From the IMG/VR virus record IMGVR_UViG_3300037151_000035, positions 1 to 22,025 of that record: 22,025 nucleotides of DNA; one strand, given 5' to 3'. A program made the translations under genes and the position numbers. The DNA comes from a virus. The notes beneath the pieces were generated by a model, which was not told the DNA's origin, did not search any database, and worked only from the letters and a program-made list of their open reading frames with translations. Below are positions 3 through 22,025 of the stretch, in pieces; the stretch's first letter is position 1, and each line of letters starts with the position of its first letter.

Positions 3-119
3 GCCGGGGCCGAGGAGGACTGGAACTCGGTCCTCGCCAGCCTCCCGGCGACGCTGGCCGTCTGGCTGCTCGCCTGCCTCCTGACGTTCCGGCGGAAGGG
101 TCAGGGGTTCCACCAGTAG
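3..119 (+). CDS. C-terminal end of a small membrane protein (5' truncated by window edge)
   Basis: This frame is open from the window edge to a TAG at 117-119. It encodes 38 residues that begin with an acidic stretch (AEEDWN), pass through one hydrophobic segment (roughly LASLPATLAVWLLACLLTF) and end in a basic tail (RRKGQGFHQ). Nearly every codon ends in G or C, as expected of a real gene in this genome. It converges on the last tail fibre gene and overlaps its 3' end by 19 bases. A small membrane protein just past the tail fibres could be a holin or lysis accessory protein, but that is inference from position only. The family is not recognised because the N-terminus lies outside the window. 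Confidence 0.55.
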   Translation, partial: AGAEEDWNSVLASLPATLAVWLLACLLTFRRKGQGFHQ

Positions 120-12091: not shown

Positions 12092-15000
12092 TCAGCGGCC
12101 GGGCAGGTTCGGGTAGGTCGTCGGGTTGCGCTTGGCCTTCTGCATGGCGAATTTCTGGCTGACCCGGGCCAGCGTCTGGCCGGAGAGGTTGATGACGATG
12201 TCCGCGTGCAGGTCGCCCGGCGATGACCAGCCGGCGCCCTGCGGGATGACCGGCGCCCGCATCCGGTCGTCATGCGGCGGCCGGTAGCGCTCGTGCGGGG
12301 CCGTGACGTGAGCGCCACCGGATCCGCCGGACGTCCCGGTGCCGGTGCCGAGCTCGGCGTCGATCTTCTTCACGGCGGCCTTGATGGCCGACCCGGAGTC
12401 ACCCAGCGCGGTCATGATCGACACCACGAGGGACTTAGCGATGGACGCCATCTCCGAGTCGACGCCCTTGAGCGAGTCCTTCAGCCCGGCGCCCAGCGCC
12501 TTGCCGATCTGGGAGGCATTCTCGTAAGCCGCGTTGGCCCCGGTCACGCCCAGCCTGGACGACGCCACGCCGATCTCGTCCTGGAGCTTCGCGATGGCCT
12601 TCACGCCGGACGCGCCCTCGCCGAGGATCTGCTGCGCCACGGGCAGCCCCCCGGACACCCCGGCGCCGAGAAGCTGCTGGATGCCTTCCTTGTCCAGCCC
12701 TTCCTTCTTCAGCCTGATGATGTCCTGGCGGAACTCGCGGATCTGGCCGAGTTGCTGCTTCAGGCCCTGCTGGATGCTGGTGTACGGGTTCTGCGACGTG
12801 CCCGCCGCGCCCTCGGCCTGGTCGGCGATCTGGAGGCCTGCGTTGGTGTTCCCCGCGATGCCGATGATGCTGGCCCCGGAGATCGCGGCGGAGGTCACCG
12901 ACTTGGCCAGCGCGTCGGCCGCGGTGATCTGGCTGACCAGCTTCGCCCGCTGCTGGGCGAGGCTCATCAGCTTCCTGTTGTCGGTGTCGAGCAGCTGCGT
13001 CAGCGCCGACCCGCGCAGGGCCTGCGCCGGGTTCCACGATTCCGTTAGCGCCTTCAGGTCGGTGCGGAGCTTCGCGGTGGCGCTCGTGATATCGCTATCA
13101 GTGAACGGGCGGGTTCCGAGCACGTCATCCATGGCCGCCTGGACGGCCGCCTTGCCGCCCATCAGGCCCAGGATCAGGCCGGCGTCGGTGTCCTCGCCGA
13201 CCTTCTGGGCCTTCCTGGACGGCGAGTGCGTCTCCAGCGCGTCCCGCATGGAGGACTCGACGGCACTGGCCACGGACGCAGCCGCAGCCGCGGCAGCGCC
13301 CTCGCCGCCCCGGATGCCGGCCGCGAGGCCCTGGTCGGCCTCCTCGCCGATCGTGCGGAACTCCCCGGGCAGCGGGGCCAGGGCAGCCTGCGCCTGCGAC
13401 ACCAGCGGGCGGATCGCGGCCACGGCCTGCGCGACCCCGGACCGGAACTCCGACGCCAGGGCCGACATGCCGGACGCGGCAGCCGATCGGGCCGCCTGCA
13501 TGGCCTGGCTCACGCCCGCCCGGACGCCGCCGGTCAGCGGGCCGAGCGCGGCGATCGACCGGGCGTCCATGTCCCGGAACGCCGAGGCGACTTGCGAGGA
13601 ACCGGACCGGGCGGCCGACTCCGCGGACTGCATCGCCTTCGCCACGGAGTCCTTAGCCGCGGCCTCGACCTGCGAGGACGACGACTTCACGGCCCTGGAC
13701 AGATCCTGGCCGTACGCCTTCCCGGCATCGTCGCCGGCCTTCGAGGCGGCGTCCTTCCCGCCGTCCAGCGACTTCACGGCCTTATCGGCGGCCGACTTCG
13801 CGTCCCCGGACGCCGAGTCGGTACCCTTGCGGAGCCCGGCACCGTACTGCTTCCCGGCGGTCTCCCCGGCCGCCGTAGCACCCTTCCCGGCATTGGCGAA
13901 CAGGCTCCGGGCGCCCTCGGGGTTCCCGGAGGTCATGTTCTTCTGCATCGACTTCGACCAGCTGGTGATCGCGCCCTGCATCCCGCTGGCCGAATCGCTG
14001 CTGGCGAGATCTTTCTTCGCGGAGTTGAAGAACCGCATCACCGGGGAGTCGGAGCCGATGCCCATCTGCCCCAGCGCCTGCTCGGCCGCGCTCTTCAGCC
14101 GGCTGGTGCTCCCGGAGTTGTGAAACAGCGAGCCGTACGAGCCGAGCGCCCTGGAGATGTCACCGCCGGCGGCTGACAGGTTCCCGAGGTTGACCTTCTC
14201 CAGCGACTGGAAGTCATTGACCATCGTGGTCAGGTCGCCGCCGTGGGTGCCGACGGCGTCCATCACCGTCGACAGGCCCTGCATGCTGCCCTTGAGCGCT
14301 GACATCGCCGCCGGGGTGACGCCCTTGACGAGGCTGCCCATGCTGGCGATGAACTGGCTGCTGCCCTTCGCCATGGCGGGGGAGACCAGGGCGCTGGCCA
14401 CGCCGCCGAGCGACGACATGAGGCTGTGCACCGAGCTGGCGACCTCGGGCATGTCCTTGGTGATGTTGCTGATGAACGTGGTCCCGGCCGGCGACTTGAT
14501 GTTCTTCCCGATGTCACGGAACATGCTGGAGATGACCGGCGCGGCGCCCTTGGCCATGGCCTCCAGCGACGGGATCGCCGCCGTGGCGTCCCTGACCCCG
14601 GACGTTATGTCCTTGAAGGCGTCCTGCTGGATGCCCGAGGTCTTGCTGGCCCGGCTGAACTCGGACGACAGGTCGTGGATCGCCGCCACGGCGGGCCGCA
14701 CGTCCGCCGGGACGCTGGCGTACGCAGCCTGCAGCTTCGCCAGGGCCGCCGCCTCGGCCGTGATGTTGTCCTTCGTCGGGTCGCGCTGCGCCACGCCCCT
14801 GGCAGTGCTGTAGGCCGTCCGGGCTGCCGAGACGGCAGACATGCCCTTCTCGACCTTGTCCAGCGCCGGGTAAGCCATGGCGCCGAAGGAGACGATCCCG
14901 GCGCCCGCGACCATCGCGGCAGGGGCGATCGACCCGACCAGCGCGATGAGGCCGGGGATCATGAGACTGGCCGGCGAGCCGCCCCCGGGCAGCTGCTCGA

Positions 15001-16312
15001 AGGCGTCGCCCATCTGGCCCGCGATCCCGACAAGGTTGCCGGCGGCACCGGAAGCCGCGGCGGCAACGCCGGCGAGTGCCCCCTCGCTGCCGGCTGCAGC
15101 AGCCTCGGTGTCGCCCAGCCCGGATGCGACGCCGCCGAGCGCCCCGCCCAGCGCCTCGGCCGCTGGCGCCGCATCGTCCATCGAGGCGGCAAGACCGGAG
15201 ATCCCGGCCTGCTGGTCATAGGCGCCCATGCCCGCAGCCATCCCGGGAACGGTGCGCTCCATCATGGAGCTGGCCATTTCCTCCGGCGTGGACTGCACCG
15301 ACGGGCCGGCCGAGTAGGCACCCCCGGCCAGCGACTCCCCGGCCCGCGCCAGGTCCTGCTCGGCCTCAGCGGCGCCCGCAGCAGCTTCCTTCCGCTCCTT
15401 CAGCCCTGCGACGTAGGCGTCATTGACCGCGGTGAAGCTGGACCCTGACGCCGGGCCCACGGACCAGGCGCCCCCCCCGAAGGACGTCACGCCGGCGGCG
15501 TCCGTCTCAGCGGCGGCAGCGGCGGCGCCGCGCAGCTCGTCCTTCAGCGCCGCGGCGCTCGCCGCGTCAGCGTCCAGCCCGGCGGCCATGCTGCCGACGC
15601 CGGCACCCGCCGACGTCACGTCATCAGCGGCTGCCGCGTCGCCGCGAAGCGCAGTGCCGAGCGACTCGGCGGCGGAGGTGCCCGCGTCCAGCCCGGCGGC
15701 GAGGCTGTCGACCGCCGCGCCGGACTCGCCCAGCTCGTGAGCCCCGTCGGCCGCCCCGGCCAGGGCGCCCCCGAGCGAGTCGGCCGACGAGGTCGACAGG
15801 TCCAGCGCCCCGGCCAGGTCATCGACCGCCGCGCCGGACTCGCCCAGCGCCGCGGCGGCACTGGCGTCATCGCGCAGGGCGTCGCCCAGGGACTCGGCGG
15901 CGCCCGTCCCGGACTCCAGTCCGGCGGCGACGGTGCCGATGCCAGCGCCTGCCGCGCTCAGCCCCGCGGCAGCGGTCGTGTCGCTGCGAAGCGCCTCGCC
16001 CAGCCCCTCGCCGGCGGCTGTCCCGGCGTCCAGCGCGCCGGCCAGGTCATCAACGCTGCCGCCCGAGGACCCCAGGCTCCCGGCGGCCTCGGCGTCCTGC
16101 CGCAGCACGTTGCCGAGCGGCTCGCCCGCGGCCTCGGCGTTCTCCAGGCTCTCGGTCAGGTCATCGACGTCAGCGGCAGCCGAGCTGACCTCGGCGGCGG
16201 CACCGGGAATCTTCTCCAGTGCCTCCGCTAGCCGGTTCGCCTCGTCTGCCGCCTCGCCGAGGGCTTCCGCGCCCTCGACGGTGATAGTGACGTTCTCCTC
16301 AACGTCACCCAC
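12092..16312 (-). CDS. tape measure protein (1406 aa)
   Basis: This protein sets tail length and is threaded inside the tail tube before being released during DNA ejection. It is the longest gene, Ala-rich and mostly helical, and directly follows the chaperone/gp10-like block, as expected. Residues 49-275 are six tandem 38-residue repeats (consensus VDDLAGALDAGTAAAESLG). Around 447-482 there is a hydrophobic stretch (SLMIPGLIALVGSIAPAAM), which in this family may insert in the host membrane. Further Ala/Ser repeats lie at about 870-1000. Near 1025-1055 is the typical tape measure motif HSPSRKAQKVGEDTDAGL. The start is GTG with only a weak GGTGAG upstream. At about 0.15 nm per residue the tail would be near 210 nm. 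No peptidoglycan hydrolase domain is evident. Confidence 0.93.
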   Translation of the reverse strand: MGDVEENVTITVEGAEALGEAADEANRLAEALEKIPGAAAEVSSAAADVDDLTESLENAEAAGEPLGNVLRQDAEAAGSLGSSGGSVDDLAGALDAGTAAGEGLGEALRSDTTAAAGLSAAGAGIGTVAAGLESGTGAAESLGDALRDDASAAAALGESGAAVDDLAGALDLSTSSADSLGGALAGAADGAHELGESGAAVDSLAAGLDAGTSAAESLGTALRGDAAAADDVTSAGAGVGSMAAGLDADAASAAALKDELRGAAAAAAETDAAGVTSFGGGAWSVGPASGSSFTAVNDAYVAGLKERKEAAAGAAEAEQDLARAGESLAGGAYSAGPSVQSTPEEMASSMMERTVPGMAAGMGAYDQQAGISGLAASMDDAAPAAEALGGALGGVASGLGDTEAAAAGSEGALAGVAAAASGAAGNLVGIAGQMGDAFEQLPGGGSPASLMIPGLIALVGSIAPAAMVAGAGIVSFGAMAYPALDKVEKGMSAVSAARTAYSTARGVAQRDPTKDNITAEAAALAKLQAAYASVPADVRPAVAAIHDLSSEFSRASKTSGIQQDAFKDITSGVRDATAAIPSLEAMAKGAAPVISSMFRDIGKNIKSPAGTTFISNITKDMPEVASSVHSLMSSLGGVASALVSPAMAKGSSQFIASMGSLVKGVTPAAMSALKGSMQGLSTVMDAVGTHGGDLTTMVNDFQSLEKVNLGNLSAAGGDISRALGSYGSLFHNSGSTSRLKSAAEQALGQMGIGSDSPVMRFFNSAKKDLASSDSASGMQGAITSWSKSMQKNMTSGNPEGARSLFANAGKGATAAGETAGKQYGAGLRKGTDSASGDAKSAADKAVKSLDGGKDAASKAGDDAGKAYGQDLSRAVKSSSSQVEAAAKDSVAKAMQSAESAARSGSSQVASAFRDMDARSIAALGPLTGGVRAGVSQAMQAARSAAASGMSALASEFRSGVAQAVAAIRPLVSQAQAALAPLPGEFRTIGEEADQGLAAGIRGGEGAAAAAAASVASAVESSMRDALETHSPSRKAQKVGEDTDAGLILGLMGGKAAVQAAMDDVLGTRPFTDSDITSATAKLRTDLKALTESWNPAQALRGSALTQLLDTDNRKLMSLAQQRAKLVSQITAADALAKSVTSAAISGASIIGIAGNTNAGLQIADQAEGAAGTSQNPYTSIQQGLKQQLGQIREFRQDIIRLKKEGLDKEGIQQLLGAGVSGGLPVAQQILGEGASGVKAIAKLQDEIGVASSRLGVTGANAAYENASQIGKALGAGLKDSLKGVDSEMASIAKSLVVSIMTALGDSGSAIKAAVKKIDAELGTGTGTSGGSGGAHVTAPHERYRPPHDDRMRAPVIPQGAGWSSPGDLHADIVINLSGQTLARVSQKFAMQKAKRNPTTYPNLPGR
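15485..16168 (-). repeat. six tandem 114-bp (38-residue) repeats in the tape measure gene
   Basis: Translated units begin at residues 49, 87, 125, 163, 201 and 239 of the tape measure, each 38 residues without gaps (the last slightly degraded). Two units share at least 26 identical bases exactly 114 bases apart (around 15706 and 15820). Each unit is two short helices: (V/I)(D/G)xLAxxLDxGT followed by AESLGxALRxDAAAA, ending in a Gly/Ala turn. Confidence 0.85.
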
Positions 16313-16827: not shown

Positions 16828-17043
16828 TCACCCCGGATCCGGCCTGCTCAGGTACCGGTAGGTGTAGTCGACCGCGTCGACCCACGCGCAGACGGCCAGG
16901 GGGAAGGCCCAGAACTCATCGGGGGTGAAGCCGCGCCGTGCCGCGTACTTGCACAGCATCGCCTCCTCGGCGGTCATCCCTCCGGGAGGATCGCTGACTC
17001 GTCCCTGGCACCACTGGAGGAGCCATCGGTAGTCGGAGCTGCT
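16828..17043 (-). CDS. tail assembly chaperone, T-frame (expressed by -1 frameshift from the G-frame)
   Basis: This is the second half of a lambda G/GT-type chaperone. Reading in the -1 frame from the slip site gives SDYRWLLQWCQGRVSDPPGG, then MTAEEAMLCKYAARRG, FTPDEFWAFPLAVCAWVDAV and DYTYRYLSRPDPG to a TGA. There are no stops between the slip site and the only ATG (16977), and the residues before that ATG (DYRWLL, PPGG) look like genuine family sequence. The ATG overlaps the G-frame stop (ATGA), but its GGAGG lies only one base away, too close for good initiation. The fusion would be 127 + 71 = 198 aa. In the known family the GT product binds the tape measure and recruits tail tube subunits. 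Confidence 0.85.
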   Translation of the reverse strand, partial: SSSDYRWLLQWCQGRVSDPPGGMTAEEAMLCKYAARRGFTPDEFWAFPLAVCAWVDAVDYTYRYLSRPDPG

Positions 17044-17423
17044 TTTGGGCCAGCGCTCAGCAGTTCCGTGCCGGTCTCGTCGGCCAGCTTCTCCAGCGCC
17101 TTGACCAGGTCCAGCGGCGCGTCGTCGCCGCCGTCCAGGACCGCCCCGTCGTAGACGCCGCCGAGCGACCAGGCCGTGACGATGCGCTGGAGCACGACGT
17201 CGCGGCGCCTCGTGAGGACGTCGCGGGAGACGATGCGCAGGGCGGGCCGCTTCACCATGCTCACGCCATCGGGGGACACCTCGTAGGGGTCGCCGTCATC
17301 GCTGACCCGCAGGCCGTCTTTCAGGCCGTTCGCTGCGTCGTTGACCTCCTGCAGTGCCTTGCGGTCGCCTCCGGTCAGCCCATCGCGCACGTCGGCCCAC
17401 CATCCGGGCCCTTCTAGCCTCAT
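16974..17423 (-). CDS. tail assembly chaperone, G-frame (149 aa)
   Basis: This is the gpG-like chaperone that coats the tape measure during tail assembly. It begins MRLEGPGWWADVRDGLTGGD, has a central DVLTRRRDVVLQRIVTAWSL helix and PLDLVKALEKLADE, and ends in a Ser/Gly-rich tail. Position (between tail tube and tape measure), length and the downstream -1 frame all match the family. AAGGAGG lies six bases before the ATG. The slippery CCCAAAA lies at codons 126-127, so a fraction of ribosomes would continue into the T-frame. The short 22-residue unshifted end (AAPTTDGSSSGARDES...) is disorder-like, consistent with being just the non-shifted terminus. Confidence 0.88.
   Translation of the reverse strand: MRLEGPGWWADVRDGLTGGDRKALQEVNDAANGLKDGLRVSDDGDPYEVSPDGVSMVKRPALRIVSRDVLTRRRDVVLQRIVTAWSLGGVYDGAVLDGGDDAPLDLVKALEKLADETGTELLSAGPKAAPTTDGSSSGARDESAILPEG
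17043..17049 (-). promoter_or_regulatory. CCCAAAA programmed -1 ribosomal frameshift site
   Basis: On the minus strand the G-frame reads GGC CCA AAA GCA. The heptamer C CCA AAA fits X XXY YYZ exactly. After a one-base slip the reading continues AGC AGC TCC GAC TAC and remains open into the T-frame to the TGA at 16828. A GC-rich pairing (ATCC...GGAT) surrounds the G-frame stop about 55 bases downstream; whether it stimulates slipping is unknown. Confidence 0.88.
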
Positions 17424-17483
17424 GCAGTCCTCCTTGTTGCGGTTCTATGACGCCAGCGTGCCGGCGCCGCGTGGCGGCGGAAG

Positions 17484-17612
17484 GTGCGGAACACCGGGTC
17501 GGTCGTGGTGCTGAACCTGTTCCTCGGCTGGGCCGTGATCGGCTGGGTGGTCGCGCTGGCGATGGCCTGCCGGACGCGCGATGCCGTGCCGCAGTCGCCG
17601 GACTTGCCCTAG
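17484..17612 (+). CDS. superinfection-immunity-like membrane peptide (about 42 aa)
   Basis: A plus-strand frame in the gap between two tail genes encodes VRNTGSVVVLNLFLGWAVIG followed by WVVALAMACRTRDAVPQSPD. The core LNLFLGW..IGWVVAL is the hallmark of the superinfection immunity protein family (T4 Imm-like), which blocks entry of a second phage at the membrane. Almost every codon ends in G or C. The preceding codons (W R R K) also fit the family, but a TGA at 17448-17450 closes the frame and no ATG is present. GTG at 17484 is the first usable start and has a poor ribosome binding site. Family members usually have an additional N-terminal segment, so this may be a truncated remnant or use an unusual start. 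It overlaps the tail tube gene end by 4 bases. Confidence 0.5.
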   Translation: MRNTGSVVVLNLFLGWAVIGWVVALAMACRTRDAVPQSPDLP

Positions 17613-18865
17613 TAGGCCGCACAGGCGTTGATGAGGGTTATCTGAGCGACACCCCAGCCGCCGCTGTTCCCGGTGTCCGTCTGGTTCCCTACGAGGGTTC
17701 CGGACAGATCGTAACCAAACAGACCCTTCGTTACCTTAAGGGGCGCTTCGGTCACTGCCCCGTAAAGCGCTGTGACCGAGAAGCTGACCTCGGCCGCGCC
17801 GGTCAGCCCGTTGGTCGTGGTCCACGTCAGGGACGGCTGAGTGTTGTTAAGCAGGTAATTCAGGGCGCTCTCGTCCAGTGCGGGCAGGTACGACAGATTG
17901 AACGTACCGGTCAGGGGTCCGCGAGAGAACACGTATACGGCCTGCTGCCCGTCGATCGTCGGGATGGCCTCGACCTTGCGGGTGAAGGACATCTTCCAGC
18001 TGGCGATGTCGTTCGGCGAGCCCCCGCCGACCGCGGATGTGCCCCGCCAGGCGGGCATCGCGCGCACGCCGGACCAGGCCGGGACCACCTCGGCGGCGAG
18101 CGCGCCCTGGGGCTGCGACATGCCCTTGCCGGTCCAGCTCAGGAACCCCATCGGGTCGCCGGAGAACTCCATGTCCGACATGCAGACATAGGGGAAGAGG
18201 TCGCCCCAATACCCGGCCGATCCGGCCACCTGGTTGCGATCTATGACGGAAAGGCTCGCAGGCTGGGACGAGACGTTGCCGGAGCTAGATGCCGGGTTCA
18301 GGGTGGAAAAGACGTGCGTAAACGGGGCCACGACGGTCGTGATGGCCGTGGCGCTCGCGTGGGCGAAGCGGACCGGGCTGGCCGTCACGATGCTCGTGGA
18401 CGTCGACCCGGTGCCCACCACGACGGTCTCGGCCGTGGTCGACGTCCCCACCTGGATCGCCGTCCCCGCAGTGAAGCTCGCGCCGCCCGATGCCACCGGA
18501 AGCGCCGACACCCCGGCCGCGACCGCGGCGCTCAGCGTCGACGTCGGCGTGCTCGCGGTCCCCGTGGAGGTCAGGTCACCGAACAGGCCCATGATAAACT
18601 GGCCGATAGTGTCGCCGTAGGTCGGCGACTCGGGGATGGACCACTCGGTCCACGACGCGCCCATCTGGAAGTCGTACGGGCCGGACGCCGCGCCGCGCAG
18701 CGCGTTGTCCGCGATGGGGTTGACCTTCGGGGCCGGGTCCCACGAGACCACCGGGACGGACACGTAGGTAGCCGGCTCGACGCCGAACCCGGCCGCCTCG
18801 CGGCCCACGTTCAGCAGGCGAGTGGCCTCCGGGTAAATTAGGGTAGGAATGGACACGCCGGTCAT
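17609..18865 (-). CDS. major tail tube protein, paralogue A (418 aa)
   Basis: This is probably the main tail tube subunit, given its place directly upstream of the chaperone pair. The N-terminal part has PVVSWDPAPKVNPIADNALRG and GASWTEWSIPESPTYGD. Residues about 110-170 are a Thr/Ser/Ala-rich insertion (AGVSALPVASGG, TSTTAETVVVGTGS, SPVRFAHASATAI) resembling the adaptor segments of the fibres. The second half holds MEFSGDPMGFLSWTGKGMS, MSFTRKVEAIPTIDGQQA and the end AQITLINACAAY. Much of it aligns by eye with the 407-aa protein at 20034-21257. The ATG follows the TAA of the 126-aa gene with no gap and has GAGGA upstream. A stretch of lower G/C near the 3' end (about 17630-17770) is visible. 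Confidence 0.82.
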   Translation of the reverse strand: MTGVSIPTLIYPEATRLLNVGREAAGFGVEPATYVSVPVVSWDPAPKVNPIADNALRGAASGPYDFQMGASWTEWSIPESPTYGDTIGQFIMGLFGDLTSTGTASTPTSTLSAAVAAGVSALPVASGGASFTAGTAIQVGTSTTAETVVVGTGSTSTSIVTASPVRFAHASATAITTVVAPFTHVFSTLNPASSSGNVSSQPASLSVIDRNQVAGSAGYWGDLFPYVCMSDMEFSGDPMGFLSWTGKGMSQPQGALAAEVVPAWSGVRAMPAWRGTSAVGGGSPNDIASWKMSFTRKVEAIPTIDGQQAVYVFSRGPLTGTFNLSYLPALDESALNYLLNNTQPSLTWTTTNGLTGAAEVSFSVTALYGAVTEAPLKVTKGLFGYDLSGTLVGNQTDTGNSGGWGVAQITLINACAAY

Positions 18866-19246
18866 TTAGTCCTCGTCTTCCTGGCCAGCGGCCGGGGTGA
18901 TGGGCGTCACGGGCGGCGTGACGGGACCGGGGGGCGTGAGCGGGGGCGTCAGGGCCGGGCTGCCGTGGTCGCCGTCCGGCATCAGCCCGGCCCCGGCCGC
19001 CTCCGGGTCGCGGCGGTACATGTCCGCGCTCACTCCCGGCCACGGGGGCGGAACCTGCTCGCCGGCGGGAACCCAGCGGGCGTCCGGCGCCGGCCAGAAG
19101 CCCGGGGCGCCCTCGGGCTTCTCCTCGCCGCCGGCGCCGAACTCGCGGCGGTCGCCAGGCTCGACGGTGCCGATCACGTCCCCGGCGGCGTCACGCGTTT
19201 CCGTATACGAGCGGGGTACCTGGTCGGCGTAGGCGTACTCGGGCAT
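18866..19246 (-). CDS. small protein with Pro-rich tail, unknown function (126 aa)
   Basis: This gene is not recognised. Its N-terminal half is compact and charged (MPEYAYADQVPRSYTETRDA, GTVEPGDRREFGAGGEE, ARWVPAGEQVPPPWPGV). Residues from about 94 on are a Pro/Thr-rich tail (SPALTPPLTPPGPVTPPVTP) ending in an acidic QEDED. GGAGGTAAGCCC precedes the ATG, a strong ribosome binding site that fixes the start. The TAA abuts the ATG of tail tube A, so the two are co-translated. The Pro-rich end suggests an extended linker or binding segment. A tail or virion accessory role is inferred only from its place between the two tail-tube genes. Confidence 0.72.
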   Translation of the reverse strand: MPEYAYADQVPRSYTETRDAAGDVIGTVEPGDRREFGAGGEEKPEGAPGFWPAPDARWVPAGEQVPPPWPGVSADMYRRDPEAAGAGLMPDGDHGSPALTPPLTPPGPVTPPVTPITPAAGQEDED

Positions 19247-19267
19247 GGGCTTACCTCCGGGAGTGGC

Positions 19268-19278
19268 GGTGGGAGGAT
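19268..19278 (+). promoter_or_regulatory. duplicated initiation block, copy 1 (GGTGGGAGGAT)
   Basis: This 11-base block is identical to 19847-19857. In both places it is followed by exactly 7 bases and then ATGAGC. It contains GGGAGGA, a good Shine-Dalgarno sequence. Read on the other strand, it lies about 20 bases before the start of the divergent tail gene. Confidence 0.5.
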
Positions 19279-19285
19279 CGTGGTC

Positions 19286-19312
19286 ATGAGCAGCGACGAC
19301 GAGCCGCGGTGA
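19286..19312 (+). CDS. eight-codon leader-like frame (MSSDDEPR)
   Basis: ATG lies 7 bases after the GGTGGGAGGAT block, and the frame stops at TGA after eight codons. The stop overlaps the ATG of the 58-aa frame as TGATG, a typical translational coupling arrangement. It may be a leader peptide that delivers ribosomes to the next frame, which has no ribosome binding site of its own. It could also be chance, or the true start of a frameshifted gene. Confidence 0.3.
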   Translation: MSSDDEPR

Positions 19313-19488
19313 TGGGCGTGAAGAAGTGCGACGTCATCGAGGTCGGCAAGGACGGGCGGACCGGCCTGGTGCGCGTGACCGAGGTCGGGCCCGACCAGCA
19401 CGGAGGCAGCCGCAACCGTCACCGCGAGGGATGGACTGGGCGCTGGGGCGAAGACGCTAGGACTTCCCCGCCATCGTCATCCCCGTGA
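19312..19488 (+). CDS. small plus-strand protein, unknown function (58 aa)
   Basis: The frame begins MGVKKCDVIEVGKDGRTGLV and continues RVTEVGPDQHGGSRNRHREG to a Pro/Ser end. The first 29 codons all end in G or C, strong evidence of coding in this frame and strand. No Shine-Dalgarno precedes ATG 19312; instead TGATG couples it to the preceding eight-codon frame. Its last 32 bases overlap the end of the 123-aa minus-strand gene. The basic, Gly-rich tail may bind nucleic acid, but no family is recognised. It lies opposite the tail operon, so it is probably expressed separately. Confidence 0.5.
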   Translation: MGVKKCDVIEVGKDGRTGLVRVTEVGPDQHGGSRNRHREGWTGRWGEDARTSPPSSSP

Positions 19489-19828
19489 CCAGGAACGGGA
19501 ACGTGGCGGTCCGCGCCTCGCCGTCCACCACGAACCGGTCGGCGAACTCCGCCGGCGGCATCTTCTCGGGCAGGTGCAGCACAGGCGTGCCGTCTGCGTC
19601 GGCGTAGAGCGTGACCTCGGCCCAGATGATCCCCTCGGCCGAGAGGTGCGCGACTACAGAGCCGGACAGCACGGTCGTGACCGGGCCGTCCGTGTCGTAG
19701 ACGCCGACTTTCCAGCCGGCGATTGCGCGGACGTCCGCGATGTCGGCAGCGGGCCACTCGATGCCGATCTCCCCGGCGAACTCGGCGGGCATGCCGTCCG
19801 CGGCGGTGTCCTCGGCAAGGTCGGTCAC
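19457..19828 (-). CDS. tail-module protein of unknown function (123 aa)
   Basis: This gene is not recognised. The protein starts with an acidic segment (MTDLAEDTAADGMPAEF), then beta-type segments (WKVGVYDTDGPVTTVLSGSV, IIWAEVTLYADADGTPVLHL, TATFPFLVTGMTMAGKS). The GTG start has AGGAG about six bases upstream. The pattern of a short beta-rich domain with DxDGxPV loops resembles small virion-decorating or tail-completion domains, which is only an impression. It lies between the two tail-tube paralogues in the same direction and is flanked by two plus-strand mini-genes. A role in tail completion or as a tail terminator is possible, since no terminator is otherwise recognised here. Confidence 0.7.
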   Translation of the reverse strand: MTDLAEDTAADGMPAEFAGEIGIEWPAADIADVRAIAGWKVGVYDTDGPVTTVLSGSVVAHLSAEGIIWAEVTLYADADGTPVLHLPEKMPPAEFADRFVVDGEARTATFPFLVTGMTMAGKS

Positions 19829-19846
19829 GGGAACTCCTGGCGGCTA

Positions 19847-19857
19847 GGTGGGAGGAT
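19847..19857 (+). promoter_or_regulatory. duplicated initiation block, copy 2 (GGTGGGAGGAT)
   Basis: This is the second copy of the 11-base block at 19268-19278, again 7 bases before ATGAGC. A TAGGTG just overlapping its left edge could be a -10-like element. The T of the block plus the next base also forms an in-frame ATG (19856). Confidence 0.5.
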
Positions 19858-19864
19858 GGGCGGC

Positions 19865-20059
19865 ATGAGCGACGAGCGAGACGCCGAGAGCGTCAACGCC
19901 GATGGCCTGGACGGAGTAAGGAAGTCCCTGAGTCTGCTGACGGACGCGCTGCTCCGCGAGCGCCGGCGATGCCTGACACCATTCCCGCCGGAACCTGCCG
20001 ATGGCGTCTACCACTTCGCGCGGGCCGGGGATCTCAGTACGAGGCCGGCCAGTAGTTGA
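19865..20059 (+). CDS. small plus-strand protein, unknown function (64 aa)
   Basis: The product starts MSDERDAESVNADGLDGV, has a likely helix RKSLSLLTDALLRERRRCL and ends in a Pro-containing segment followed by ADGVYHFARAGDLS. The start at 19865 is supported by GGGAGGA within the duplicated block; an in-frame ATG at 19856 would add three residues. It occupies the gap between two minus-strand tail genes and overlaps the end of tail tube B by 26 bases. Codon usage is mostly but not wholly G/C-ending, weaker evidence than for its neighbours. A small charged helix-rich protein could be regulatory. No family is recognised. Confidence 0.45.
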   Translation: MSDERDAESVNADGLDGVRKSLSLLTDALLRERRRCLTPFPPEPADGVYHFARAGDLSTRPASS

Positions 20060-21257
20060 CCAGCGTGGCCGTGAACGCCGCGTCCCCGACCGGCTCAGCG
20101 AGCCCCGACAGCTTGAAGGAAGCTTTCAGGTAGGCATCATCCTGACCGGCCTCGCCGTCCCACCATCCGCTGCGCGGCATCGTCAGCGACAGGGAGCATC
20201 CCCCGGCGAGCACGGGCTGGGTCAGCACGTGGACCGCGGGCTCCTGGCTGGCTTCGGTGAACACGTCCATGTCGGACTGGTCCTCGAAGATCGCCGTGTA
20301 CGCGCCGTCCGCCGTGAGCGCGCCGGGCCAGATGCCGAGCGGCGCCTGCGACCCGTTGACGCAGGGCACGACGCCGAGCTTCCGCGAGAGCATCAGGTCC
20401 ATCGCCAGCCCCCGCGTGGACGGCAGCGCCACGGTGATGCCGGACGGGTCCGACAGCGGCCGGACGGCAGGCCCCGCCACCCCGTCCGCGAGCACGCCGC
20501 TCCCCTGCGTGATGCCCCACTGCCAGCCCTGCATGGGCTGCGCGGGCGTGGCGTCGTAGGCGAACGTCTCCTGCGTGGCTGGCGGCATGCCGGAGGCGGT
20601 GGCCTTGAGGCCGACGTAGCCCTCCTTGCTGATGCTGACCAGCAGCGAGCCGAAGACGCAGCCGGGCCAGCCGAGCGGGCCGGTGCCGTCGTCCATCGTC
20701 AGGCTGTAGCGCGGCCAGGAGAACGTCGGGCCGGCCTGCGACTGGGCGAATACGTGGGTGCTCCGGGACGCCGCGGCCTCGCCGGCGTCGTGAGCGAACC
20801 GCAGCGGCGTGGCCAGCGGAACGCTGTACGGACCTGGGCCGGTCGCTGCGCCTGCCTGCGCGTACTCCAGCGTGTCACCAGCGCCGATCATCAGCACGGC
20901 CCCCGCGGCAGGCTCCTCGCCGAGGGAGAGGGACTGCGCGCCCCCGGCCGCTGCGGACCGCAGCTGGGTGGTGACGCCGGGGGTGCAGGTGTCCGGGCCG
21001 ATGAGCGCCCGCAGGTACCAGCCAGCCAGGTCCGGGTAGCCGTCCGAGGGGATCGTCCACTCCGACCACGCCGGGCCCTGCTGGAGGTCCTGCTCGGTGC
21101 TGTCGGAGCCGCGGAGTGCCCGGTCGCGGAGAGGGGTGATGCGCTGGCGGTAGCGCGTGCCCCGGCCGTAGGTCACGGTGAACGCGGGAGGCTCGTAGAC
21201 GCCGGGGACCGTCTCGGCGGCGATGCCGAGCTTCGCCATGCGCGAGAGAACCGACAC
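20034..21257 (-). CDS. tail-tube-like protein, paralogue B (407 aa)
   Basis: This is a second tail-tube-type protein and the first gene of the minus-strand run. Blocks shared with paralogue A, in the same order, are LRGSDSTEQDLQQGPAWSEW, TPLRFAHDAGEA followed by STHVFAQ, then SISKEGYVGLKATASGMPPA, LSRKLGVVPCVNGSQAP with PGALT, and a C-terminal TLVNYWPASY. The start is GTG at 21257 with GCGGAGG upstream; an internal ATG (residue 7) is the alternative. It could form part of the tube, for example a distinct segment near the head or tip, or a tube-like adaptor. Which of A and B is the bulk subunit cannot be decided from sequence, but A lies next to the chaperones. Confidence 0.78.
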   Translation of the reverse strand: MSVLSRMAKLGIAAETVPGVYEPPAFTVTYGRGTRYRQRITPLRDRALRGSDSTEQDLQQGPAWSEWTIPSDGYPDLAGWYLRALIGPDTCTPGVTTQLRSAAAGGAQSLSLGEEPAAGAVLMIGAGDTLEYAQAGAATGPGPYSVPLATPLRFAHDAGEAAASRSTHVFAQSQAGPTFSWPRYSLTMDDGTGPLGWPGCVFGSLLVSISKEGYVGLKATASGMPPATQETFAYDATPAQPMQGWQWGITQGSGVLADGVAGPAVRPLSDPSGITVALPSTRGLAMDLMLSRKLGVVPCVNGSQAPLGIWPGALTADGAYTAIFEDQSDMDVFTEASQEPAVHVLTQPVLAGGCSLSLTMPRSGWWDGEAGQDDAYLKASFKLSGLAEPVGDAAFTATLVNYWPASY

Positions 21258-21279
21258 GGCGCCCTCCGCTGGCTACGCT
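21251..21279 (+). promoter_or_regulatory. promoter for a leaderless transcript (CCGACA-17-TACGCT)
   Basis: CCGACA (21251-21256) and TACGCT (21274-21279) are 17 bases apart. The expected transcription start is at or next to the ATG at 21286. Actinobacteria often use leaderless mRNAs with this geometry. The -35 overlaps the start codon of the divergent tail-tube gene B, so expression of the two directions may interfere. Confidence 0.45.
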
Positions 21280-21285
21280 GGGGTA

Positions 21286-21351
21286 ATGCGAGGTCACAGG
21301 CAGAATGCGCCAGCGCCCGAGTCCTGTCCGACTATGACGGTCATGTCATGA
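21286..21351 (+). CDS. 21-residue leaderless frame (possible leader peptide)
   Basis: ATG lies seven bases after the TACGCT -10 element. The frame reads MRGHRQNAPAPESCPTMTVM and then S and a TGA that overlaps the ATG of the next frame (ATGA). There is no ribosome binding site, as expected for leaderless translation. Its main role may be to couple translation to the membrane peptide downstream. Codon usage is not clearly coding. Confidence 0.3.
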   Translation: MRGHRQNAPAPESCPTMTVMS

Positions 21352-21458
21352 GCCGCGCCGGGCGGTGCGCGCGGCGGCGGATCCGCCGGGCCGGGTGCTG
21401 GCTCCTGCCGTTCCTGGCCGTACTGGCAGCTGCGGGGGTGCTGGCGCTGTGGCCGTGA
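21348..21458 (+). CDS. 36-residue single-span membrane peptide
   Basis: The frame starts MSRAGRCARRRIRRAG, strongly basic, followed by a single hydrophobic span CWLLPFLAVLAAAGVLALW and one final Pro. By the positive-inside rule the N-terminus should stay in the cytoplasm. It overlaps the preceding frame by ATGA and the following one by GTGA, a coupled three-frame run. It is too short to place in a family. Small membrane peptides of this type in phages can be holin-like or exclusion factors; this is inference. Confidence 0.45.
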   Translation: MSRAGRCARRRIRRAGCWLLPFLAVLAAAGVLALWP

Positions 21459-21616
21459 GCGATGAGGCCGACTACCTCAAGGTGCTCTACGACCTGAGCG
21501 CGCCCTGGGTCAGGCTGCGGCTCATCCGCGTGACGGACCCGGCCGTCAACCCGCGCCATCTCTGGTCGGAGGCTGAGGCAGCGGATTATCAGGCGCTGAT
21601 GGATCGGCTAGGCTGA
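21455..21616 (+). CDS. small acidic/helical protein, unknown function (53 aa)
   Basis: The product starts MSDEADYLKVLYDLSAPWVR and continues LRLIRVTDPAVNPRHLWSEA followed by ADYQALMDRLG. It looks like a compact three-helix protein. The GTG start overlaps the stop of the membrane peptide (GTGA). Codons are almost all G/C-ending in the first two thirds, so coding is well supported. It is co-transcribed with the membrane peptide and may be its partner. No family is recognised. Confidence 0.55.
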   Translation: MSDEADYLKVLYDLSAPWVRLRLIRVTDPAVNPRHLWSEAEAADYQALMDRLG

Positions 21617-21633
21617 CCCGCGAATAAGCGATG

Positions 21634-21663
21634 TTGACTATTGCTGCTTACTCCTGCTAGGGT
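21634..21663 (+). promoter_or_regulatory. sigma70-type promoter (TTGACT-18-TAGGGT)
   Basis: TTGACT at 21634-21639 and TAGGGT at 21658-21663 are separated by 18 bases, a good actinobacterial housekeeping-type promoter. It lies in a locally AT-richer patch in the 79-base gap before the gene at 21696. The transcript would have a leader of about 25 bases ending in AGGAGG. Confidence 0.65.
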
Positions 21664-21695
21664 TTCCTACATCCGAAACTCTACAGGAGGCCATC

Positions 21696-22025
21696 ATGAC
21701 CAGGGTCAACGTCTACGAGACTCTCCCCGAGGACGACTTCGGCTACGCGCCGCCGAAGCTCGCTGGCTGGTTCGACGTCGCCAAGGCTGAGCGCTGGACC
21801 GACGCAGACCACGACGGCAACGGCAGCGGCGGAACCGGGCGCGGGAAGGCCGTCATCCGCACCGCGCAGGGCAAGTGGGTGCTCCAGCACTGGAGCGCAT
21901 GGCAGCAGGACGAGGCCACCGGGTACGTCTACATCACCCCCGATGAGGCCCGCGAGTGGCTGCTGCGCAACCAGGAGGACCACGCCGCGGAAAAGTACTT
22001 CGGCGAGCTCGCGGAAGAAGAGGAC
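21696..22025 (+). CDS. actinobacterial small hypothetical protein (3' truncated by window edge)
   Basis: The frame runs 110 codons to the window end without a stop. It begins MTRVNVYETLPEDDFGYAPP, then GWFDVAKAERWTDADHDGNG, then the conserved-looking GKWVLQHWSAWQ and GYVYITPDEAREWLLRN, ending in an acidic stretch. The pattern of a short WVLxxWSxWQ strand followed by xxITPxEAxxWLLxN recalls a small family seen in actinobacterial genomes, plasmids and phages, with no known function. AGGAGG lies six bases before the ATG, behind its own promoter, so it is probably well expressed independently of the tail operon, for instance in the lysogenic or early state. Confidence 0.75.
   Translation, partial: MTRVNVYETLPEDDFGYAPPKLAGWFDVAKAERWTDADHDGNGSGGTGRGKAVIRTAQGKWVLQHWSAWQQDEATGYVYITPDEAREWLLRNQEDHAAEKYFGELAEEED

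What the first reader, a model, noticed from the sequence alone, without database searches (positions are those of the whole stretch)
17424..21616. Counter-strand mini-genes occupy the gaps of the tail operon
Plus-strand frames with coding-like third positions fill the gaps at 17.48, 19.31 and 19.87 kb and the stretch 21.29-21.62 kb; another ends at 119. Their 3' ends overlap tail genes by only 4-32 bases. This looks like repeated insertion of independently expressed small genes (morons) in opposite orientation. Two of them encode single-span membrane peptides, a hallmark of exclusion or immunity functions, so the set may be a dispersed superinfection-exclusion or lysogenic-expression module.
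Basis: partly seen in the sequence, partly recalled or inferred. Interest (0 to 1): 0.62.

Follow-up and report, generated by a model that had tools for sequence, protein, structure and literature searches.

The report
Reverse cargo genes in phage tail operon
The gaps between this soil actinobacterial phage's tail genes hold small reverse-strand passenger genes, several with what looks like their own on-switch; one is a truncated copy of a known "keep other phages out" gene, so this is a real but partly decayed set of phage accessory genes.

Summary
In detail: coordinates and 3' overlaps are right. Open frames alone prove little in such GC-rich gaps (P 0.06-0.79), but homology does. Frame 17484 passes Pfam's cut-off for Imm_superinfect (E 8e-8), and a close relative has the full 85-aa Imm on the same strand in the same gap. 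Frames 19865 and 21348 have homologues in the same gaps of other relatives; 19309 keeps the tail of a DUF6221 protein. In relatives these gaps hold different counter-strand genes (Imm, DUF6221, HNH endonucleases, membrane peptides) or are empty; the interval just upstream of tail gene p126 is occupied in all 14 phages mapped. New here: an upstream element, GTGGGANNAT, found 14 times in 235 kb, always in gaps, 13 times on the counter strand, usually 6-7 bases before a start codon. It resembles an extended -10, leaderless promoter. So these work like morons with their own promoters. The exclusion module is only partly supported: the window's Imm copy lacks its first membrane helix, an ordinary start and any promoter-like element, and is probably a relic; most other cargo has no known function. 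Expression could not be tested.

The parts
17484..17612 (+). Truncated Imm_superinfect homologue, 42 aa, GTG start, second membrane helix only; probable relic
   Evidence: PF14373 E 7.8e-8, profile 16-42/42; phrog_1039 4.5e-10; full 85-aa homologue in same gap of L002; in-frame stops at 17415-17417 and 17448-17450, no -10-like hexamer at leaderless distance
19269..19278 (+). Promoter-like element GTGGGAGGAT, 7 bases before ATG 19286
   Evidence: the extended pattern is expected 0.12 times in the window, found twice
19286..19312 (+). 8-codon leader frame MSSDDEPR, its stop overlapping the next ATG (TGATG)
19309..19488 (+). DUF6221 relic: ~25 C-terminal residues kept, most of the domain missing
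   Evidence: Weak tblastn to DUF6221 of L002 and L014 (E 0.002-0.03); same gap holds intact DUF6221 in L003
19848..19857 (+). Promoter-like element GTGGGAGGAT, 7 bases before ATG 19865
19865..20059 (+). 64-aa counter-strand gene, function unknown, looks intact
   Evidence: Homologue in equivalent gap of L012/L022, E 6e-7 with the same upstream element
21274..21279 (+). -10-like TACGCT, 6 bases before ATG 21286
   Evidence: Sequence; same spacing in L067 (TATGCT)
21286..21351 (+). 21-codon leader frame, ATGA-coupled to 21348
   Evidence: Sequence
21348..21458 (+). 36-aa single-span membrane peptide
   Evidence: Homologue in same gap of L067, E 1e-5, same coupling on both sides; hydropathy
21455..21616 (+). 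53-aa frame GTGA-coupled to 21348; no homologue found
   Evidence: Codon score; no relative
21634..21663 (+). Promoter-like TTGACT-N18-TAGGGT
   Evidence: Only match of TTGACNN{16,19}TANNNT in the window, expected 0.10
21696..22025 (+). 110+ aa gene with strong Shine-Dalgarno, cut by the record's end; function unknown
   Evidence: Codon score 81; no family
3..119 (+). 3' end of another counter-strand frame with one membrane span, cut by the record's start
20034..21257 (-). Operon gene mtp2 (minor-tail-like, phrog_290), frame of reference
18866..19246 (-). Operon gene p126; the interval upstream of it is occupied by counter-strand genes in all phages mapped
17609..18865 (-). Operon gene mtp1 (tail-tube-like), used to find relatives

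Best explanation
The gaps of this late (tail) operon are recurrent landing sites for small autonomous cargo genes on the opposite strand: moron-like genes. Shown by sequence: homologous counter-strand genes sit in the same gaps of related phages, the same gap may be empty or hold different cargo, and many of the genes carry a short upstream element (GTGGGANNAT or TANNNT) 6-7 bases before their start codon. Inferred: the element is an extended -10 promoter making leaderless transcripts, so the genes are read while the late operon is silent (lysogeny or early infection) and are opposed by convergent late transcription. Cargo includes the Imm superinfection-immunity family, DUF6221, small membrane peptides and HNH endonucleases; the latter may help move neighbouring cargo (inferred). 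In this window the set is partly worn: Imm is cut to its second helix and DUF6221 to its tail, while 19865, 21348 and 21696 look intact.
For: Imm domain hit and full-length Imm in the same gap and strand of L002; Imm in another gap of L011; homologues of 19865 and 21348 in matching gaps; variable occupancy across relatives, with empty gaps in L004, L012, L014; GTGGGANNAT 14 times in 235 kb, all in gaps, 13 counter-strand, 12 hits against 0 for the reversed control in ten whole records; 10 of 33 counter-strand leaders against 2 of 182 operon genes with a -10-like hexamer at leaderless distance; the MTNHP gene is found in both orientations, each time with its own element.
Against: No transcript data. 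No terminator-like site in 17000-22025. GC content of the cargo is like the operon's. The element was first noticed on some of the sites later counted, so the counts are partly circular. pN/pS of 0.54-0.70 on 34-40 codons is weak evidence of constraint and biased downwards. The window's Imm and DUF6221 copies are truncated, and the homology of 19309 rests on a weak match plus position.
Confidence: 0.78

Rival explanations
1. A working dispersed superinfection-exclusion module: the small membrane peptides in the gaps together block injection by other phages.
For: 17484 belongs by sequence to the Imm family; full Imm copies exist as counter-strand cargo in L002 and L011; further membrane peptides at 21348 and before 119.
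Against: The window's Imm lacks helix 1, an ordinary start and a promoter-like element; no other cargo tested matches an exclusion or defence family; much cargo is HNH, DUF6221 or unknown.
Confidence: 0.12
2. The GTGGGANNAT element is not a promoter but a one-way repressor site in late-operon gaps, like the stoperators of cluster A mycobacteriophages (from memory), and the counter-strand frames are a side issue.
For: Sites lie in short operon gaps and almost all point one way.
Against: Spacing to the counter-strand start codon is fixed at 6-7 bases in 11 of 14 sites; only 0-2 sites per phage record; when the MTNHP gene is turned round in L046 the element turns with it; frames are conserved as proteins.
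Confidence: 0.05
3. The frames are mostly non-coding: antisense shadows or leaders of antisense RNAs that regulate tail genes.
For: Frames of this length are common by chance in such gaps. PMC7067206 reports an antisense exclusion RNA over late genes of a Salmonella prophage.
Against: Protein-level homology at matching positions, ATGA couplings kept in L067, coding-like third positions. Remains possible for 21455 and the relics.
Confidence: 0.05

Closest known systems
Phage morons / prophage accessory genes antisense to lytic genes, e.g. STMMW_20121 of prophage ST64B (PMC7067206)
   Same: Cargo between or against lytic genes, own promoter, present in some relatives and absent in others
   Different: Here several junctions of one tail operon are used, one interval is occupied in every phage mapped, and many genes share one leaderless-type upstream element; no terminators seen; expression untested
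Imm superinfection immunity family (PF14373, phrog_1039; T4 Imm, 'Imm-like' proteins of Mycobacterium and Gordonia phages)
   Same: Second-helix core (LNLFLGWAVIGWVVALAMA) above Pfam's cut-off; full members in L002 and L011 on the counter strand
   Different: The window's copy lacks the first helix. Annotated copies looked at lie outside the tail operon: next to the repressor region in Pelly, after the par genes in Nedarya
DUF6221 (PF19730), actinobacterial family of unknown function
   Same: Recurrent counter-strand cargo in L002, L003, L004 (two copies in its record), L011 by homology, L014 by homology, L046; weaker in L037 and L028
   Different: Only a C-terminal stub in the window; AlphaFold model (pLDDT 78) has no significant match in PDB or viral libraries
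Actinobacterial leaderless promoters with TGN-extended -10 (PMC3898074)
   Same: TGN then a -10-like hexamer, no -35 conserved, start codon at transcript-start distance
   Different: First base of the hexamer is usually G (GANNAT), not T; activity not measured

Membership tests
Moron (autonomous phage cargo gene) | Site empty or differently filled in close relatives | tested here: met
Moron (autonomous phage cargo gene) | Own promoter | tested here: inconclusive
   Strong sequence pattern but no transcription data; the Imm frame itself has none
Moron (autonomous phage cargo gene) | Own terminator | tested here: not met
   No terminator-like site in 17000-22025; hence 'works like a moron', not filed as a classical one
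Moron (autonomous phage cargo gene) | Expressed from the prophage, dispensable for lytic growth | not testable with these tools
   Needs RNA-seq and deletions
Moron (autonomous phage cargo gene) | Base composition unlike the flanking genes | tested here: not met
   GC by codon position is similar
Imm_superinfect (PF14373) | Score above the curated cut-off | tested here: met
   32.5 bits against 27.9
Imm_superinfect (PF14373) | Whole domain with both membrane helices | tested here: not met
   Profile 16-42 of 42 in the window; L002 covers 1-42 and L061 2-42
Imm_superinfect (PF14373) | Blocks entry of superinfecting phage DNA | not testable with these tools
   Needs plating assays
DUF6221 (PF19730), frame 19309 | Domain of about 122 positions above cut-off | tested here: not met
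   No Pfam hit; only ~25 C-terminal residues align with relatives

The most novel reading that the evidence does not exclude
The counter-strand genes form a dispersed regulon: one shared leaderless promoter type (GTGGGANNAT) at tail-operon junctions turns on interchangeable cargo in lysogens, and convergent late transcription turns it off, so that strand orientation itself acts as the lysogeny/lysis switch for accessory and defence cargo.
Probability: 0.3. Interest if true: 0.68.

Novelty: new variant of a known kind. Interest (0 to 1): 0.5.

Why it matters
Small counter-strand genes in late operons are easily dismissed in GC-rich phages, where antisense frames are everywhere. Here positional homology plus one shared upstream element gives a cheap rule for finding the real ones, and points to tail-gene junctions of uncultured actinophages as a place to look for exclusion genes and other prophage-expressed cargo.

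Tried and rejected
Nucleotide search of the whole window in phage records: no match; mtp1 protein search there: no match. Chance ORFs as the whole explanation: rejected by homology. Strict sigma-70 promoter and terminator scan: nothing. PADLOC and NCBIfam on the cargo: nothing. DUF6221 structure and fold search: no match, so no function is proposed for it. An upstream in-frame first helix for the window's Imm: rejected (stops at 17415-17417 and 17448-17450). The element as a Shine-Dalgarno sequence: rejected, because its two middle bases vary freely and in L002 and L014 it stands before a separate Shine-Dalgarno and start. The element as a purely phage-specific signal: not shown; in Trebonia kvetii it is 3-fold above control (30 against 10 in 9.3 Mb), so it may be a host-type promoter that these phages use preferentially. 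Paper searches for DUF6221 and Imm_superinfect in this setting: nothing relevant.

Full report
What the window is. The record is a 22,025-base virus fragment whose minus strand is a tail operon: two related tail-tube-like genes (mtp2 20034-21257, mtp1 17609-18865), small genes between them (p123 19457-19828, p126 18866-19246), p149, p49, p162, a tape measure gene 12092-16312 and fibre genes. Nothing similar is in GenBank phage records, but relatives were found among uncultured virus contigs, and one distant one (32% identity) in the genome of Trebonia kvetii, an actinobacterium. The L002 phage carries an integrase-like and an HTH-repressor-like gene (recognised by eye from the translations), so the group is probably temperate.

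Noticed in passing
window 17609-18865 and 20034-21257: The two tail-tube-like genes of the operon are distant relatives of each other (each finds the other's place in relatives, E about 1e-7 to 1e-10): a duplicated tail protein.
   Followed up: no
L027 7525-8739 -: A 404-aa counter-strand frame between p162 and the tape measure gene reads like a TnpB-type transposon protein (by eye), so mobile elements also enter these gaps.
   Followed up: no
L037 1985-6368: A relative with about seven counter-strand genes around its mtp2, the densest case seen.
   Followed up: partly
L070 13127-15683 (L002 phage, right arm): The same upstream element also stands before minus-strand genes outside the tail operon, one of them HNH-like by eye.
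   Followed up: partly
L021 9555 -: A GTGGGAGAAT site in an operon gap with no called counter-strand gene after it.
   Followed up: no
L077 6994-8534 -: A block of seven counter-strand genes between fibre genes of the L011 phage.
   Followed up: no
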